DNA of 64,000 bases from Oscillospiraceae bacterium (GTDB lineage Bacteria; Bacillota; Clostridia; Oscillospirales; Ruminococcaceae): NCBI GenBank assembly GCA_021201235.1, contig JAJQFI010000025.1, positions 124,001 to 188,000 on the forward strand, in the 5' to 3' direction. Below the pieces are notes generated by a model. The model was given only the letters and a program-made list of their open reading frames with translations. It did no database searches and was not told the origin of the DNA. Shown piece after piece: positions 4,923 to 11,295 of this stretch. Position 1 is the stretch's first letter, and each line of letters starts with the position of its first letter. The position numbers were made by a program, and so were the translations under genes.

Positions 4923-6527
4923 ATGTTCAAACGCAATCTGAATTATGTCAAAAATATCGCCCTGCCGGGGCTCATATTCAGCTTCATAGCGGGAACGCTT
5001 ACGGGGGCTTTTATCGTTCTGTACCGGTTTGTGGCGAACAAGGTCATAAATCTGTCGGAGACGGTCTATTCAACCGTGAGGGAAAGACCGGTGCTCGTTA
5101 TCCCCGCTGTTCTCGTTCTCGGGGCGATGGCGGCGATTCTCGCATTCGTATATAAGCAGACGCCGAACCTCAAGGGTGGCGGCATCCCGACTGCTATCGG
5201 AATCCTCAGGGGCGGCATCCGCTTCAACTGGCTCAAGAACCTTATCGGAGTAACGTTGGCGTCGCTCTCGACGTTCTTTGTCGGTGTACCATTAGGCAGT
5301 GAAGGACCGAGCGTGCAGATTGGTACCGCAATCGGCCGCGGAACCGTCAAGACGATGGCGGGGAAGAACCAGGCTTGGGACAGATATGTCATGACCGGCG
5401 GCGCCTGTGCCGGCTTCACTGCGGCGAACAATGCGCCGATTGCCGGAATCATGTTTGCAATCGAAGAGGCTCACCAGAGAATCAGCCCGATGATAATAAT
5501 GACGGCGTTTTCGTCGGTCATGTTCTCGTCAATCACCGTCCGGTGGATGTGCCCACTTCTTGGGATGGATGCCGACATGTTCCCCGGAATTTCGGAGCAC
5601 GTCCGGGAGCTCGGGCTCTCTCAGCTCGGGGTTATCGCCATCTGCGCGATAGTCGTCGGACTTATGTCGGTCATCTTCCTTCGCTACTTCATGGTGATGA
5701 GAAAATTCATCGGGGAGAAGCTCTCGGCGATGAGCCTCCGCTTAAAGATTTTCATCGTCTTCATGCTCACCTTTGCGTTCGGACTTATTTCCTATGACTT
5801 CATCTCGACCGGTCACGATTTGGTTGACAGTTTGCTCGAAGGGAATGTCCTGTGGTATATTATACTTGCGATTCTTCTCTATAGGGCGACGATGCTCCTG
5901 GCGGCGAACAACACCGGCATCAACGGCGGCATGTTCGTCCCGATAATCGCTCTGAGTGCGCTTGTCGCCTCGCTCGTCGCGAAGGTCACAATCGGTGCGG
6001 GGCTTATCAGTGCGGATTACTACAGCACTATTGTGGTCTTGGGCATCACCGCCAGAATCTCCGGCATGATGAAGTGCCCGCTTACGGCGATGGTCTTCTC
6101 GATTGAAGCCCTCGGCTGTTCGGAGAATATTCTCCCGGTAATACTGGCGGCGGCGCTTTCCTACATAATCACCGAAGCCTTCGGCACCGAGTCAATCAAC
6201 GAAGAGGTCGTTGCGGGACGTATCAGAGAGATTAATTACGGCAAGGTCCCGAAGGTAATAGATACATTCGTAACCGTCGGCGGGAACACCTTCGCTGTCG
6301 GCAAGCAGATCAGAGATATCTTCTGGCCGCAGAACCTGTTCGTTCTTTCGGCCAAACACGGTGAAACCGCCGGCGCCGAGGTCGACAGCCACGGCGACAA
6401 CACCCTTCAGGAAGGCGACATCCTCCACGTCCGCTATATGACCTATGACAACAGCGCCACGAAAGAGGAGCTCTACGCCATCGTCGGCGAGCAGAAGATA
6501 GAATCGAGAAGAGCGGTGGATGTTTAA
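4923..6527 (+). CDS. ClC family chloride/proton channel with C-terminal RCK_C-like domain
   Basis: GSEGPSVQIGTAIG, ClC selectivity motifs, TrkA-C-like tail. Confidence 0.9.
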   Translation: MFKRNLNYVKNIALPGLIFSFIAGTLTGAFIVLYRFVANKVINLSETVYSTVRERPVLVIPAVLVLGAMAAILAFVYKQTPNLKGGGIPTAIGILRGGIRFNWLKNLIGVTLASLSTFFVGVPLGSEGPSVQIGTAIGRGTVKTMAGKNQAWDRYVMTGGACAGFTAANNAPIAGIMFAIEEAHQRISPMIIMTAFSSVMFSSITVRWMCPLLGMDADMFPGISEHVRELGLSQLGVIAICAIVVGLMSVIFLRYFMVMRKFIGEKLSAMSLRLKIFIVFMLTFAFGLISYDFISTGHDLVDSLLEGNVLWYIILAILLYRATMLLAANNTGINGGMFVPIIALSALVASLVAKVTIGAGLISADYYSTIVVLGITARISGMMKCPLTAMVFSIEALGCSENILPVILAAALSYIITEAFGTESINEEVVAGRIREINYGKVPKVIDTFVTVGGNTFAVGKQIRDIFWPQNLFVLSAKHGETAGAEVDSHGDNTLQEGDILHVRYMTYDNSATKEELYAIVGEQKIESRRAVDV

Positions 6528-6545
6528 AAAACACGTTTAAACCCA

Positions 6546-6573
6546 ATAAAAAAGCTGTTGACAAAGCAACAGC
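6546..6573 (-). terminator. Terminator of the small hydrophobic ORF; its hairpin DNA overlaps the -35 of a plus-strand promoter
   Basis: Minus strand GCTGTTG-CTTTGT-CAACAGC-TTTTTTATT. Confidence 0.7.
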
Positions 6574-6586
6574 GATGGGGTATAAT
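6558..6586 (+). promoter_or_regulatory. SigA promoter for putative antisense RNA
   Basis: TTGACA (6558-6563), 17 bp, TATAAT (6581-6586); directed into the 3' end of the minus-strand small ORF. Confidence 0.75.
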
Positions 6587-6696
6587 AACGGTAAGAGAGC
6601 GGAGCTGCCGGTAACAGCTCCGGCTCAACTAATATGCGCTCCTGAGAAGGATGCACTAAAATTGGAATTGGTCGGGACTTTTACTCTAGCTCTCGG

Positions 6697-6789
6697 CTAT
6701 TTCTTTTTATTCCCGGAGGTTAAGCCGAGAATGCCAAGTACTATGTTCGTAATCAGATTAAGTAGTGAGAACACTTCTAAAATCGTCAT
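6697..6789 (-). CDS. Putative type I toxin, 30 aa hydrophobic peptide MTILEVFSLLNLITNIVLGILGLTSGNKKK
   Basis: Preceded by TAAGGAGGTGGTCGTT-ATG; single TM, lysine-rich C-terminus; own promoter at 6851-6879. Confidence 0.65.
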   Translation of the reverse strand: MTILEVFSLLNLITNIVLGILGLTSGNKKK

Positions 6790-6850
6790 AACGACCACCT
6801 CCTTAGTTTTATCAAAGGTCAGGCCGTTTTTTCGCTCTCTTACCGAGGTT

Positions 6851-6879
6851 GTTATAGCATATGTTTCGGACAATGTCAA
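6851..6879 (-). promoter_or_regulatory. SigA promoter of putative type I toxin 1
   Basis: Minus-strand TTGACA-N17-TATAAC. Confidence 0.75.
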
Positions 6880-7026
6880 CGAATAAATTGCTTATATCGC
6901 CAATTTGCGCCTTGTTCCACTAAAGAAGATTGTGCAAAAAATACTTTGATTTAGTCCGCATATTGTGCTATACTTGATAACTGATCAGAAAACTCTGTAT
7001 ATTTTTAGGAAAGAAGTGGGTCAAAA

Positions 7027-8295
7027 ATGGAGGAAATTCTGATATGTTTATCACTCGCAATGATTTGCGGACTTTTGATGACAAGACTGGCGAAGCTCGT
7101 GCACCTTCCCGCCGTCACGGCGTATCTGGTCACGGGTATACTTTTGGGTCCGTTCTGCCTCGGCTCTCTCGGAATTGAGGGCTTGGGCTTTACCTCCCTT
7201 GAGCAGGTCGACAGCTTTTCGATTATTTCACAGGTAGCACTGGCATTTATAGCGTTTCTAATCGGTAACGAGTTCAAGGTTTCGGAACTCAAGTCGATGG
7301 GCAAGCAGGCGATAACGGTCGGCATCTTGCAGGCTGTCGTCACGACGATTGTCGTCGATATCGGGCTTATTGCTTTGCACTTCATCTTCCCGGACGCTAT
7401 TTCTCTTCCGGCGGCTATCACCCTCGGTACAATCGCCTCGGCAACCGCTCCGGCGGCAACGCTCATGGTCGTAAACCAGTACAAGGCGCACGGACCGCTC
7501 ACTAAGCTTTTACTTATGGTAGTAGCAATCGACGATGCGGTCGGCTTGGTGCTCTTCTCAGTTTCATATGGAATTGCGGACGCACTCGAGCAGGGCAGAG
7601 TTTCGGTTGTCAACATCGTCCTTGAGCCGGTTATCGAGATAGTTCTTTCGATAGTCTTAGGCGTCCTTATGGGGCTCATCCTCAGATGGTTCGAGAAGTT
7701 TTTCAAGTCGAGAGCCAACAGAATGTCTATTTCGATTGGCGTAGTAATTCTCGCCGCGGCGGTTTCGATGTCGGAATTTGAGATTGGCGGAGTCAAAATC
7801 GGCTTCTCGCTTCTTCTCACCTGCATGATTACGGGCGCAATCTTCTGCAACACAAGTGAGCTTTCGCCCAGCGTTATGGAGAACGACGACAGGTGGACAT
7901 CCGCTCTTAATGTCCTATTCTTCGTAATTTCCGGTGCGGAGCTTGATTTGAGCATCCTGACACAGCCGCTTGTCCTTCTGGTCGGTATCACCTATATCAT
8001 CTTCCGCTCGTTAGGAAAGATTTTCGGCGCGTTCTCATCCACCAAGATGACCGGTTGCAGTCCGGAGATTCAGAAATACTTGGGCATCACCCTTCTCCCA
8101 CAGGCGGGAGTTGCACTCGGAATGGCGACCACTGCGGCAAACCTGCAGGACGGCGCGCTTATAAGAAACGTGGTTCTCTTCTCGGTAATGGTCTATGAGC
8201 TCGTCGGACCGACACTCACAAAGATTGCTCTCAAGAGAGCAGGGGAGATTGCCCCCGATGCGGATAAACCGGCGAAGAAAGCGGCTAAAGCATGA
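7027..8295 (+). CDS. CPA2-type cation/proton antiporter
   Basis: Multi-TM; LPAVTAYLVTGILLGPF, LGTIASATAPAATLMVV motifs. Confidence 0.88.
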   Translation: MEEILICLSLAMICGLLMTRLAKLVHLPAVTAYLVTGILLGPFCLGSLGIEGLGFTSLEQVDSFSIISQVALAFIAFLIGNEFKVSELKSMGKQAITVGILQAVVTTIVVDIGLIALHFIFPDAISLPAAITLGTIASATAPAATLMVVNQYKAHGPLTKLLLMVVAIDDAVGLVLFSVSYGIADALEQGRVSVVNIVLEPVIEIVLSIVLGVLMGLILRWFEKFFKSRANRMSISIGVVILAAAVSMSEFEIGGVKIGFSLLLTCMITGAIFCNTSELSPSVMENDDRWTSALNVLFFVISGAELDLSILTQPLVLLVGITYIIFRSLGKIFGAFSSTKMTGCSPEIQKYLGITLLPQAGVALGMATTAANLQDGALIRNVVLFSVMVYELVGPTLTKIALKRAGEIAPDADKPAKKAAKA

Positions 8296-9191
8296 TTACC
8301 ACGGTAACTCTCAGCCCGTGTCTTGACAAGACGGTGAAGACCGGAAAGCTCGACCTCGATGCCATGAACCGGGTCGAGCCTGTAAGCCTCGACATCGGCG
8401 GTAAGGGTATCAATGTGAGCAGGGCTTTGACTCGGCTTGGAGTCAGTAGCCGCGCGCTCGGCTTCAATTTCGACGGTGGTGAGGCTATCCCGGAAACTCT
8501 CGAATCTGAGGGCATTGAGTACAGATTTACCCAGTGCCCGGGTTCGCTCAGAACGAATCTTAAAATCATGGAGACCGAGCTCGGCAGGACCGTTGAAATC
8601 AACGAGTCGAACCCGGAGGTCAGCCATGAGTGCATCGAGGCGCTGAAGGCATCTGTTGCCGAATCCGCCCGTGACAGCGAGTTTATCGTCCTTGCGGGGA
8701 GCGTCCCGAAGGGCGTCGGAAGCGATATTTACCGTCAGATCGGAGAGCTTTCGAATGCAAAAGTGATTCTTGACGCACAGGGCGAGCTCTTGCGGGAAGG
8801 CTTGAAAGCGCACCCCTTCATGATAAAGCCGAACATTTTCGAGCTAGAGACGCTTGTCGGGAAGATTTCTTCCGAAAGTGAGATAATCTCGGCGGCGAGG
8901 AAGATAATTTCGGATTACGGCGTGCAGGTCGTCTTGATCTCAAGAGGCGCAGACGGGGCGATTATCGTCTCCGAAGCCGAGTGCCACAAGGCTCCGGCTG
9001 TGAAGGTGCCGGTCAAGAGCACCTCGGGAGCAGGCGACAACATGCTTGCCGGGGCAATCCTTGCCTTGACCAAGAATTTGCCGCTCGAGGGCGTCCTCAA
9101 GTACGCCGTCACCACGGCGGCGGGAGCAATCTCGCATGAAGGGACGACGTTTTGCACGAAGGAAGAGTTTGAAGAGCTCCTCGGAGAATAA
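8292..9191 (+). CDS. PfkB family 1-phosphofructokinase / hexose-phosphate kinase
   Basis: MITTVTLSPCLDKTV...IGGKGINVSRALTRLG...TSGAGDNMLAGAI. Confidence 0.9.
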   Translation: MITTVTLSPCLDKTVKTGKLDLDAMNRVEPVSLDIGGKGINVSRALTRLGVSSRALGFNFDGGEAIPETLESEGIEYRFTQCPGSLRTNLKIMETELGRTVEINESNPEVSHECIEALKASVAESARDSEFIVLAGSVPKGVGSDIYRQIGELSNAKVILDAQGELLREGLKAHPFMIKPNIFELETLVGKISSESEIISAARKIISDYGVQVVLISRGADGAIIVSEAECHKAPAVKVPVKSTSGAGDNMLAGAILALTKNLPLEGVLKYAVTTAAGAISHEGTTFCTKEEFEELLGE

Positions 9192-9212
9192 AAAAGCTGT
9201 TGACAAATCAAC
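9191..9212 (-). terminator. Terminator of second small hydrophobic ORF, overlapping antisense -35
   Basis: Minus strand GCTGTTGA-TTTG-TCAACAGC-TTTTTTATT. Confidence 0.72.
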
Positions 9213-9228
9213 AGCGATGGGGTATAAT
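9200..9228 (+). promoter_or_regulatory. SigA promoter for second putative antisense RNA
   Basis: TTGACA-N17-TATAAT; nearly identical to 6558-6586. Confidence 0.75.
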
Positions 9229-9234
9229 ATAAGT

Positions 9235-9340
9235 GGTGAGAGGTACCTGAAGTGGCATTCAGGCACGATTACTCTTTCCATAGCGTTAACTACAAAATTC
9301 GCAATCGCACTTGATGTTAATCAGGTGCGGTTATTTCTAA
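9235..9340 (+). ncRNA. Putative antisense RNA (type I antitoxin)
   Basis: Downstream of promoter 9200-9228; hairpin CCTGAA-gtggca-TTCAGG near 5' end; terminal hairpin CGCACTTGAT-GTTA-ATCAGGTGCG (9306-9329) followed by GTTATTTCT; overlaps the 3' end of the minus-strand ORF. Confidence 0.5.
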
Positions 9341-9420
9341 CGGCGATCGCCGAGGCTAAGACCTAAGTTGATGGAAGCTATTACAAGAAGTAAAAGCTGA
9401 AGGATATCTGCAATTTCCAT
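9337..9420 (-). CDS. Putative type I toxin, 27 aa hydrophobic peptide MEIADILQLLLLVIASINLGLSLGDRR
   Basis: SD GGGAGGTGG 7 nt before ATG; single hydrophobic helix, charged C-terminus; own promoter at 9477-9506. Confidence 0.62.
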   Translation of the reverse strand: MEIADILQLLLLVIASINLGLSLGDRR

Positions 9421-9476
9421 CGGTACTCCACCTCCCTTCTTCAGGGAAAGAGCAACCGTATCCTCCCACCGAGGAC

Positions 9477-9506
9477 ATTATAACACAGGGTGTAGCTTGC
9501 TGTCAA
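9477..9506 (-). promoter_or_regulatory. SigA promoter of putative type I toxin 2
   Basis: Minus-strand TTGACA-N18-TATAAT. Confidence 0.75.
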
Positions 9507-9529
9507 TAAATAAATTTTGAAAAAAGCTG

Positions 9530-9558
9530 TTGACAAATGGGCAGCGAAGGGGTATACT
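9530..9558 (+). promoter_or_regulatory. Promoter of the rimP-nusA-infB operon
   Basis: TTGACA-N17-TATACT; flanking sequence aaaaaagctgttgacaaa...gcagcgawgggg shared with 6548 and 9191 copies. Confidence 0.8.
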
Positions 9559-9569
9559 ATATTTAATAA

Positions 9570-9610
9570 CTCTTATGAAAGGCTGGAATTTCGTTCCGGT
9601 CTTTTGTTTT
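9570..9610 (+). promoter_or_regulatory. Terminator-like leader hairpin (possible attenuator) before rimP
   Basis: GGCTGGAA-tttcg-TTCCGGTC-TTTTGTTTT between promoter and ATG. Confidence 0.6.
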
Positions 9611-9635
9611 GGATAGCCTTGAAAGGGGTGAAAGT

Positions 9636-10127
9636 ATGTCTGTAATCAAATCCGACAGCCCGACAGTCGCGAAGGTTCGCCAGATTGCCGAGCCTATGTG
9701 CGAGGAATTGGGGCTTTATCTCTGGGATGTCAGATATGAAAAAGAGGGAGCTTCGTGGTACCTTAGGATTATCATCGACAAGGACGGCGGGGTTGACATG
9801 AACGACTGCGAGGCGTTGCACCGTCCGCTTAGCGACAAGCTTGACGAGCTCGACCCGATAAAGCAGTCCTATATCTTCGAGGTGTCAAGCCCGGGGCTCG
9901 GGCGGGAGCTTCGGCGGCTCGACCACTTCGAGGTCTGCATCGGTGACCTGATCCGGATCAGGTTCATAAGACCTCGTGACGGTGAGAAGGAGATACTAAG
10001 AGTCCTCACCGCCTACGACAAGGACGGAATCACGGTTTTGGATGAAAACGAACAGGAAGAAAAAATCAGCTTTGAAGAGTGCGCAAAGATTACGCTCTTT
10101 GATGACGACGATTTGGAATTAGATTGA
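9636..10127 (+). CDS. rimP: Ribosome maturation factor RimP
   Basis: Sequence and synteny with nusA; ATG 9636 after GAAAGGGGTG. Confidence 0.93.
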   Translation: MSVIKSDSPTVAKVRQIAEPMCEELGLYLWDVRYEKEGASWYLRIIIDKDGGVDMNDCEALHRPLSDKLDELDPIKQSYIFEVSSPGLGRELRRLDHFEVCIGDLIRIRFIRPRDGEKEILRVLTAYDKDGITVLDENEQEEKISFEECAKITLFDDDDLELD

Positions 10128-10158
10128 TTACTACCAAGAAAGGACTGGTTAAAACAAT

Positions 10159-11295
10159 ATGAAGAGAAAAACTAAGGCGGCTCAGAGCCATGAACTTAAT
10201 TTGGATGAGCTGTTCGGTGCTATCGACGGCTTGCAGGAAGAGAGCGGCATTCAGCTTGACGAACTGTTAGAGAAAATAAAGCAGGGCATCCTCAAGGCTG
10301 TAAAGAGAGACTATCCCGGAAACGAGAACGTCAGAGTTGACCTTGCCCCCGAAACCAAGAAATTTGAAATCCACATTATGAAGACTGTCGTCGAGGGCGA
10401 GCCGGAGGACCCGGCTAACGAAATCTCCCTCGAGCAGGCAAGGACATACGATGCAAACGCTTATGTCGACGGGACGGTCGAGATTCCCGTTTCCCCGTCG
10501 GCGTTCGGAAGAGTTGCGGCTTCCTCGGCAAAGCAGTCGATTCGCTCCGACCTCAAGCAGTTCGAGCGCGACAGACTTGTTTCGCAGTATAAAGACAAGG
10601 AGCACGAAATCGTCTCCGCAACCGTCCAGAAGGTCGAGCCGGCAACCGGCAACGCTATCCTCACCATCGACAAGGACGAGATTTATTTCCCGAAGGGAGA
10701 GCAGATCCCCGGGGAGGAACTCAAGCCGGGCGACATCATCAAGGTTTATGTCGTCGGCATACTTAATCCCGACAGAAAGCCCTCGGTCAAGGTCTCAAGA
10801 ACTCACCGCGACTTTGTAAGAAGGCTGTTTGAGCTCGAGGTTCCCGAGATTTACGACGGAATCGTCGAGATAAAGTCCATAGCCCGTGAGCCCGGCTCAA
10901 GAAGCAAGATTGCTGTCTCCTCGAACGACGAGAACGTCGACGCCATCGGCGCCTGCATCGGAAACCACCGCTCAAGAATCGGTGCGATTGTCTCGGAACT
11001 CGGCGGCGAGAAGATTGATCTTATCAAGTACTCGGAGGACGACGCCGAATTCATCAAGCAGGCTTTGTCACCTGCCGAGGTCATGAGCGTCACCATCGAA
11101 AGCGACGAGATAAAGTCGGCAAGAGTTGTCGTTCCCGAGTCTCAGCTTTCGCTCGCTATCGGCAACCGCGGACAGAACGCCAAGCTTGCGGCTCGACTCA
11201 CCGGCTACAAGATTGACATCGTTTCTCCCGATAAGCTAGCAGCTGCTGTCGCAGCTGAAGAAGCCTCTGACGAGTCTTCTTCAACCGGAGAGTAA
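10159..11295 (+). CDS. nusA: Transcription termination/antitermination protein NusA
   Basis: NusA S1 and KH motifs, synteny. Confidence 0.97.
   Translation: MKRKTKAAQSHELNLDELFGAIDGLQEESGIQLDELLEKIKQGILKAVKRDYPGNENVRVDLAPETKKFEIHIMKTVVEGEPEDPANEISLEQARTYDANAYVDGTVEIPVSPSAFGRVAASSAKQSIRSDLKQFERDRLVSQYKDKEHEIVSATVQKVEPATGNAILTIDKDEIYFPKGEQIPGEELKPGDIIKVYVVGILNPDRKPSVKVSRTHRDFVRRLFELEVPEIYDGIVEIKSIAREPGSRSKIAVSSNDENVDAIGACIGNHRSRIGAIVSELGGEKIDLIKYSEDDAEFIKQALSPAEVMSVTIESDEIKSARVVVPESQLSLAIGNRGQNAKLAARLTGYKIDIVSPDKLAAAVAAEEASDESSSTGE

What the first reader, a model, noticed from the sequence alone, without database searches (positions are those of the whole stretch)
9191..9506. Second type I TA-like module with the same architecture, 2.6 kb away
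Minus strand: TTGACA-N18-TATAAT, leader, GGGAGGTGGAGTACCG-ATG, 27-aa peptide MEIADILQLLLLVIASINLGLSLGDRR, then terminator GCTGTTGA-TTTG-TCAACAGC-TTTTTT. Plus-strand promoter TTGACA-N17-TATAAT would make a ~105-nt RNA with a 5' hairpin (CCTGAA/TTCAGG) and a terminator-like hairpin (9306-9329) overlapping the toxin stop. The ORF is below the 60-aa cutoff of the supplied track. The peptide differs from module 1, but the control DNA is nearly the same.
Basis: partly seen in the sequence, partly recalled or inferred. Interest (0 to 1): 0.78.

Follow-up and report, generated by a model that had tools for sequence, protein, structure and literature searches.

The report
Multi-copy type I toxin-antitoxin cassette
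A 320-base cassette encodes a 27-residue hydrophobic peptide with a matching antisense RNA; it is one of about 17 related copies in this uncultured Oscillospiraceae genome and looks like a previously uncurated family of bacterial self-poison/antidote (type I toxin-antitoxin) modules, although its toxicity is untested.

Summary
It is not a "second module": protein profiles find 17 related toxin ORFs in this 2.06-Mb genome, and an antitoxin covariance model finds 6-15 matches in each of 11 of 31 genomes of the genus. Distant relatives with the same layout occur in three other genera.

Family-level evidence favours a type I toxin-antitoxin (TA):
- purifying selection on the peptide (dN/dS 0.18-0.42);
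- a perfect antisense promoter 88-118 nt past the stop in 29 of 30 parsed toxins found by protein alone;
- covarying RNA helices (SD hairpin, 5'-3' mRNA fold-back, antitoxin hairpins);
- a toxin terminator built into the antitoxin promoter (60/64);
- solitary antitoxins with deleted toxins, but no toxin without an antisense promoter.

The peptide reaches no curated family (Pfam Hol_Tox tested, not met). Caveats: no expression or toxicity data; the window copy has lost its C-terminal KK; its only ortholog is frameshifted. The pfkB-rimP gap holds different subfamilies in different species and nothing in two, so modules seem to swap as cassettes.

Verdict: a real new family of a known kind.

The parts
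9477..9506 (-). toxin promoter TTGACA-N18-TATAAT
   Evidence: 12/12 consensus
9190..9470 (-). predicted toxin mRNA (start and end inferred)
   Evidence: promoter and terminator positions; fold z -5.3
9445..9471 (-). leader blocks that pair with the 3' UTR of the same mRNA (fold-back); CTCTTTCC can instead pair with the SD
   Evidence: RNAalifold and pair counts on 38 relatives
9431..9449 (-). SD-closing hairpin with SD GGGAGG at 9436-9431
   Evidence: hairpin conserved, C-G to U-A in 16 of 38 sequences at one pair
9337..9420 (-). 27-aa hydrophobic peptide ORF, A-type toxin
   Evidence: subfamily dN/dS 0.42
9190..9215 (-). toxin mRNA terminator; its stem is made of the antitoxin -35 region and spacer
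9200..9228 (+). antitoxin promoter TTGACA-N17-TATAAT
   Evidence: 12/12 consensus; same position and quality in 29 of 30 parsed relatives
9235..9338 (+). predicted antisense RNA antitoxin, about 105 nt
   Evidence: covariance model match 9233-9334 (G000:C1:133233-133334)
9246..9263 (+). antitoxin 5' hairpin
   Evidence: outermost pair G-C to A-U in 13 of 38
9306..9338 (+). antitoxin terminator hairpin 9306-9329 and U-rich tail over the toxin stop
   Evidence: compensatory changes at several pairs

Best explanation
It is a chromosomal type I toxin-antitoxin module. The minus strand makes a mRNA of about 280 nt whose SD is shut in a local hairpin as soon as it is transcribed; the completed mRNA also folds back 5' to 3'. 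The plus strand makes a short antisense RNA from a consensus promoter; it is fully complementary to the mRNA's 3' UTR and begins with nearly the same sequence as the toxin leader. It should bind the 3' UTR, displace the leader so that this closes on the SD, and expose the duplex to RNase III. When antitoxin supply falls, mRNA escapes and the hydrophobic peptide inserts in the membrane. Shown by computation: layout, conservation, selection, covariation, nesting. Inferred: transcription, duplex decay, displacement and membrane toxicity.
For: Layout kept in 30 of 30 parsed toxin loci of four genera found by protein alone, 29 with a 12/12 antisense promoter. dN/dS 0.18-0.42 in three subfamilies. 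Fold-back helix 95.8% paired with 11 both-side changes (shuffled mean 3.4), whole structure 78 (shuffled mean 23). mRNA fold z -5.3 for this copy and -5.5 to -7.6 on average. Terminator inside the antitoxin promoter in 60 of 64. Solitary antitoxins exist, toxins without antisense promoter do not. Cognate duplex -208 kcal/mol. SD less accessible with the 3' UTR occupied in 53 of 64 elements.
Against: No transcript, toxicity or membrane data. The SD is mostly paired in every modelled state, so the antitoxin's effect on translation is only modest in silico. The only ortholog of this copy is frameshifted, and this copy lacks the KK tail of most relatives. RNA structure may lower dS.
Confidence: 0.8

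Rival explanations
1. A small regulatory membrane peptide, not a toxin, under tight antisense control, for example acting on a transporter or the cell envelope.
For: Single hydrophobic stretch, conserved sequence; toxicity untested.
Against: Many copies per genome at varied loci, patchy presence, toxin loss with antitoxin retained: a pattern expected of TA modules, less of a housekeeping regulator.
Confidence: 0.12
2. The window copy is a decaying remnant of such a module, transcribed perhaps but no longer an active toxin.
For: The G008 ortholog is frameshifted at 99.1% identity; KK lost by an early TAG and the antitoxin U-rich tail interrupted; subfamily A has the highest dN/dS.
Against: ORF, SD, both promoters and all helices are intact in the window copy; a copy in G006 (L024) also ends in RR.
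Confidence: 0.3
3. A repeat element or small mobile cassette whose promoters and hairpins are structural, with an ORF by chance.
For: Multi-copy, variable location, exchange at one site.
Against: Synonymous changes outnumber amino-acid changes in 91-100% of pairs; homology covers just the two transcription units and no transposase or target duplication was seen.
Confidence: 0.05

Closest known systems
TxpA/RatA, BsrG/SR4, BsrE/SR5 of Bacillus subtilis (PMC6562991)
   Same: Convergent toxin mRNA and antisense RNA that pair at the mRNA 3' end over about 100 bp; hydrophobic small toxin; SD closed in a hairpin; for BsrG/SR4, antitoxin binding tightens SD closure.
   Different: No sequence relation detected; peptides are 25-38 aa; the antitoxin is wholly nested in the mRNA, the toxin terminator lies inside the antitoxin promoter, and the two RNAs share their 5' sequence.
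C. difficile type I TA modules such as CD2517.1-RCd8 (PMC6563280)
   Same: Clostridia, multi-copy, convergent overlapping, unannotated small hydrophobic proteins with a basic C-terminus.
   Different: Toxins of 34-59 aa, often in prophages or by CRISPR arrays; no link to either was seen for this family, though prophage context was not systematically tested.
AapA/IsoA of Helicobacter pylori and hok/Sok (PMC6733600)
   Same: Long-distance 5'-3' mRNA interaction plus a local SD hairpin acting during transcription; several copies per chromosome for AapA.
   Different: In those systems the long-distance interaction itself closes the mRNA and 3' processing activates it; here the antisense RNA covers only the 3' UTR and resembles the toxin leader. 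No 3' processing was tested.

Membership tests
Type I toxin-antitoxin (functional class) | small hydrophobic peptide gene | tested here: met
   27 aa, maximum 19-residue hydropathy 2.14; coding under purifying selection in the family
Type I toxin-antitoxin (functional class) | antisense RNA overlapping the toxin mRNA | tested here: met
   promoter, covarying hairpins and full complementarity predicted; the transcript itself was not observed
Type I toxin-antitoxin (functional class) | peptide toxic when expressed | not testable with these tools
   needs an experiment
Type I toxin-antitoxin (functional class) | antisense RNA prevents toxin production | not testable with these tools
   needs an experiment; cognate pairing is predicted to be specific
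Pfam Hol_Tox PF16935 (TxpA/BsrG-like holin-like toxins) | profile match above the curated cut-off | tested here: not met
   best member E 0.08; 0 of 7 genomes over the cut-off, though B. subtilis-type controls ring
NCBIfam, PHROGs or PADLOC families | significant profile match | tested here: not met
   nothing better than E about 0.02
Rfam BsrG RF01412 | score above the gathering threshold | tested here: not met
   21.5 bits against 55, and for module 1 only

The most novel reading that the evidence does not exclude
The family is a system of exchangeable TA cassettes: conserved promoter ends act as recombination arms, so one chromosomal slot (pfkB-rimP) holds different, non-cross-neutralising toxin types in sister species, while toxin-less antitoxins act as immunity genes. 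It would be a type I analogue of polymorphic toxin-immunity typing, with antitoxins that mimic the toxin's own leader.
Probability: 0.25. Interest if true: 0.7.

Novelty: new member of a known kind. Interest (0 to 1): 0.5.

Why it matters
ORFs this short lie below usual gene-calling cut-offs, and a toxin-like family with up to 17 copies in one genome of an uncultured Oscillospiraceae clade matches no curated model tested here. The many aligned copies are a natural experiment on how an antisense antitoxin, mRNA fold-back and an SD lock evolve together, and a slot that swaps cassettes makes the spread of type I modules directly testable.

Tried and rejected
Curated-family membership by Pfam, NCBIfam, PHROGs, PADLOC and Rfam (not met). 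Phage, plasmid and viral origin: two DNA patterns in viral contigs and tblastn of one C-type peptide in phages and plasmids gave nothing; the search for related loci could not use the alignment or such short queries. A strong 'switch' in which the finished mRNA frees the SD was considered: the SD stays mostly paired in all modelled states, so only a modest effect is claimed. The count of leader-3'UTR pairs alone is not decisive (44% of shuffles reach 8 pairs); the argument rests on fold z-scores and covariation. mis-parsed one locus (L132), which is left out of the 29/30.

Full report
Observation. Reading 5800-10200 and a promoter/terminator scan confirm every element claimed: perfect promoters on the plus strand (9200-9228) and the minus strand (9506-9477), SD GGGAGG, a 27-codon ORF at 9420-9337, a minus-strand terminator at 9215-9196 plus T6, and antitoxin hairpins at 9246-9263 and 9306-9329. 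One correction: the U-rich tail, not the 9306-9329 stem, lies over the toxin stop codon.

Family. DNA search of the genus finds strong copies in G000 and G006-G015; the named records that carry the motif are uncultured 'Oscillospiraceae bacterium' and 'Ruminococcus sp.' MAGs. A covariance model of the antitoxin finds 6-15 matches at E <= 0.01 in each of those 11 genomes, a few of them weak opposite-strand echoes, and one weak match (E 0.003) in G018. Protein profiles find 17 toxin ORFs in the window's genome and rare distant copies in G175, G260 and G475 (three other genera, two families). The peptides were sorted by simple motifs into subfamilies A, B and C; the window copy is A-type, module 1 is C-type. 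The window module's DNA finds nothing outside the window's own genome at 1e-7 in a sample of 199 family genomes, which included only two other members of the genus.

Coding. Nei-Gojobori dN/dS is 0.42 (A, 93 pairs), 0.18 (B) and 0.19 (C), with dN<dS in 91-100% of pairs. RNA structure could lower dS, so this is support, not proof. Peptides have one hydrophobic stretch and a mostly basic C-terminus. In most A-type relatives the last codons AAG AAA TAA are the complement of the antitoxin's U-rich tail (seen). The window copy has a TAG two codons early, losing KK and interrupting that tail.

Antisense. Among toxin ORFs found by protein profile only, 29 of 30 parsed loci have a 12/12 consensus promoter on the opposite strand 88-118 nt past the stop, and the remaining one has a single mismatch. 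About 10% of random stretches in the same loci also contain a perfect promoter, but those loci include the module itself. Toxin promoters are weaker (21 of 30 perfect). The toxin terminator's 3' arm is the complement of the antitoxin -35 region; in 60 of 64 elements the promoter spacer supplies a pairing arm better than 90% of shuffled spacers, in differing registers. So the two signals, toxin terminator and antitoxin promoter, are kept superimposed.

RNA structure. The window mRNA folds at -94.5 kcal/mol, z -5.3; mean z is -5.5 to -7.6 in the three subfamilies. RNAalifold on 38 A/B mRNAs finds, unprompted, a 5'-3' helix (GGTGAGAGG with CCTCTCACC and a second block), a hairpin on the SD, and the antitoxin's hairpins. 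Counting pairs: the long-range helix is 95.8% paired with 11 both-side changes (shuffled mean 3.4; slid versions 42-62% paired); the whole structure has 78 both-side changes (shuffled mean 23). Because the structure came from this alignment, the slid control is generous to it, and cells count sequences, not events. Both RNAs begin with closely similar sequences, which change together between groups (GGTGAGAGG, GATGAGAGG, AGCAAGAGAG, GACAAGAAAG). So the antitoxin resembles the toxin leader and should compete with it for the 3' UTR. Modelled SD accessibility is low in all states, and lower with the 3' UTR occupied in 53 of 64 elements.

Specificity. Cognate duplexes score -198 to -236 kcal/mol; module 1 against module 2 scores about -50 with at most 7 nt of perfect match. 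Cross-neutralisation is therefore unlikely.

Loss pattern. Of 64 distinct antitoxin matches in fetched loci, 51 have an intact SD plus ORF. By eye, the other 13 include solitary antitoxins with the toxin deleted, three with a hairpin inserted between SD and start codon, one with a weakened SD, and the frameshifted G008 ortholog. No parsed toxin lacks an antisense promoter. Keeping the antidote when the poison is lost is what a TA predicts.

Cassette exchange. The gap between pfkB and rimP holds the A-type module in G000 and G008, a C-type in G007 and G011, a third type (MSITEVLLLLDILLTAVSLGY-like) in G013, G012 and, by its visible part, G010, and no module in G009 or G015; G006 and G014 could not be judged from the stretch held. 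G008 and G013 share the same antitoxin promoter at the same position but different interiors. Between G000 and G008 the module is 99.1% identical while pfkB is 88.9% and rimP 97.6%, so the block was probably moved or converted recently. That promoters are the recombination arms is inference.

Known systems. The layout and the 3' pairing are those of TxpA/RatA and BsrG/SR4 (PMC6562991); the fold-back and SD hairpin recall AapA/IsoA and hok (PMC6733600); multi-copy, unannotated Clostridia loci are known in C. difficile (PMC6563280). Membership of Hol_Tox was tested and not met. Searches of the held library did not find this family, which is weak evidence of novelty since many journals are missing.

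Conclusion. A real, apparently new, multi-copy family working like a 3'-overlapping type I TA. Expression and toxicity remain to be shown, and the window copy may be partly eroded.

Noticed in passing
window 9520-9560: The rimP-nusA promoter in G000 and G008 looks chimeric: -35 and spacer of an antitoxin-type promoter joined to the native rimP -10 and start (compare L150-L157).
   Followed up: partly
pfkB-rimP gap, loci L148-L158: Different TA subfamilies occupy the same intergenic site in sister species; the site is empty in G009 and G015.
   Followed up: yes
L008:1501, L010:1501, L014:1501 (G000): Solitary antitoxin-like RNAs with promoter and terminator but no toxin ORF; L010 keeps a toxin-type promoter.
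   Followed up: partly
L056, L087, L131: Three B-type modules carry a hairpin inserted between SD and start codon, which may silence or regulate the toxin.
   Followed up: no
G009:C15, G006:C79, G010:C37, G000:C1:80-85 kb: Modules and solitary antitoxins cluster, several within 10-20 kb.
   Followed up: no
L121:1501-2048 (G015:C4): Two tandem antitoxin-model matches with equal scores about 440 nt apart, suggesting a recent tandem duplication of a module.
   Followed up: no
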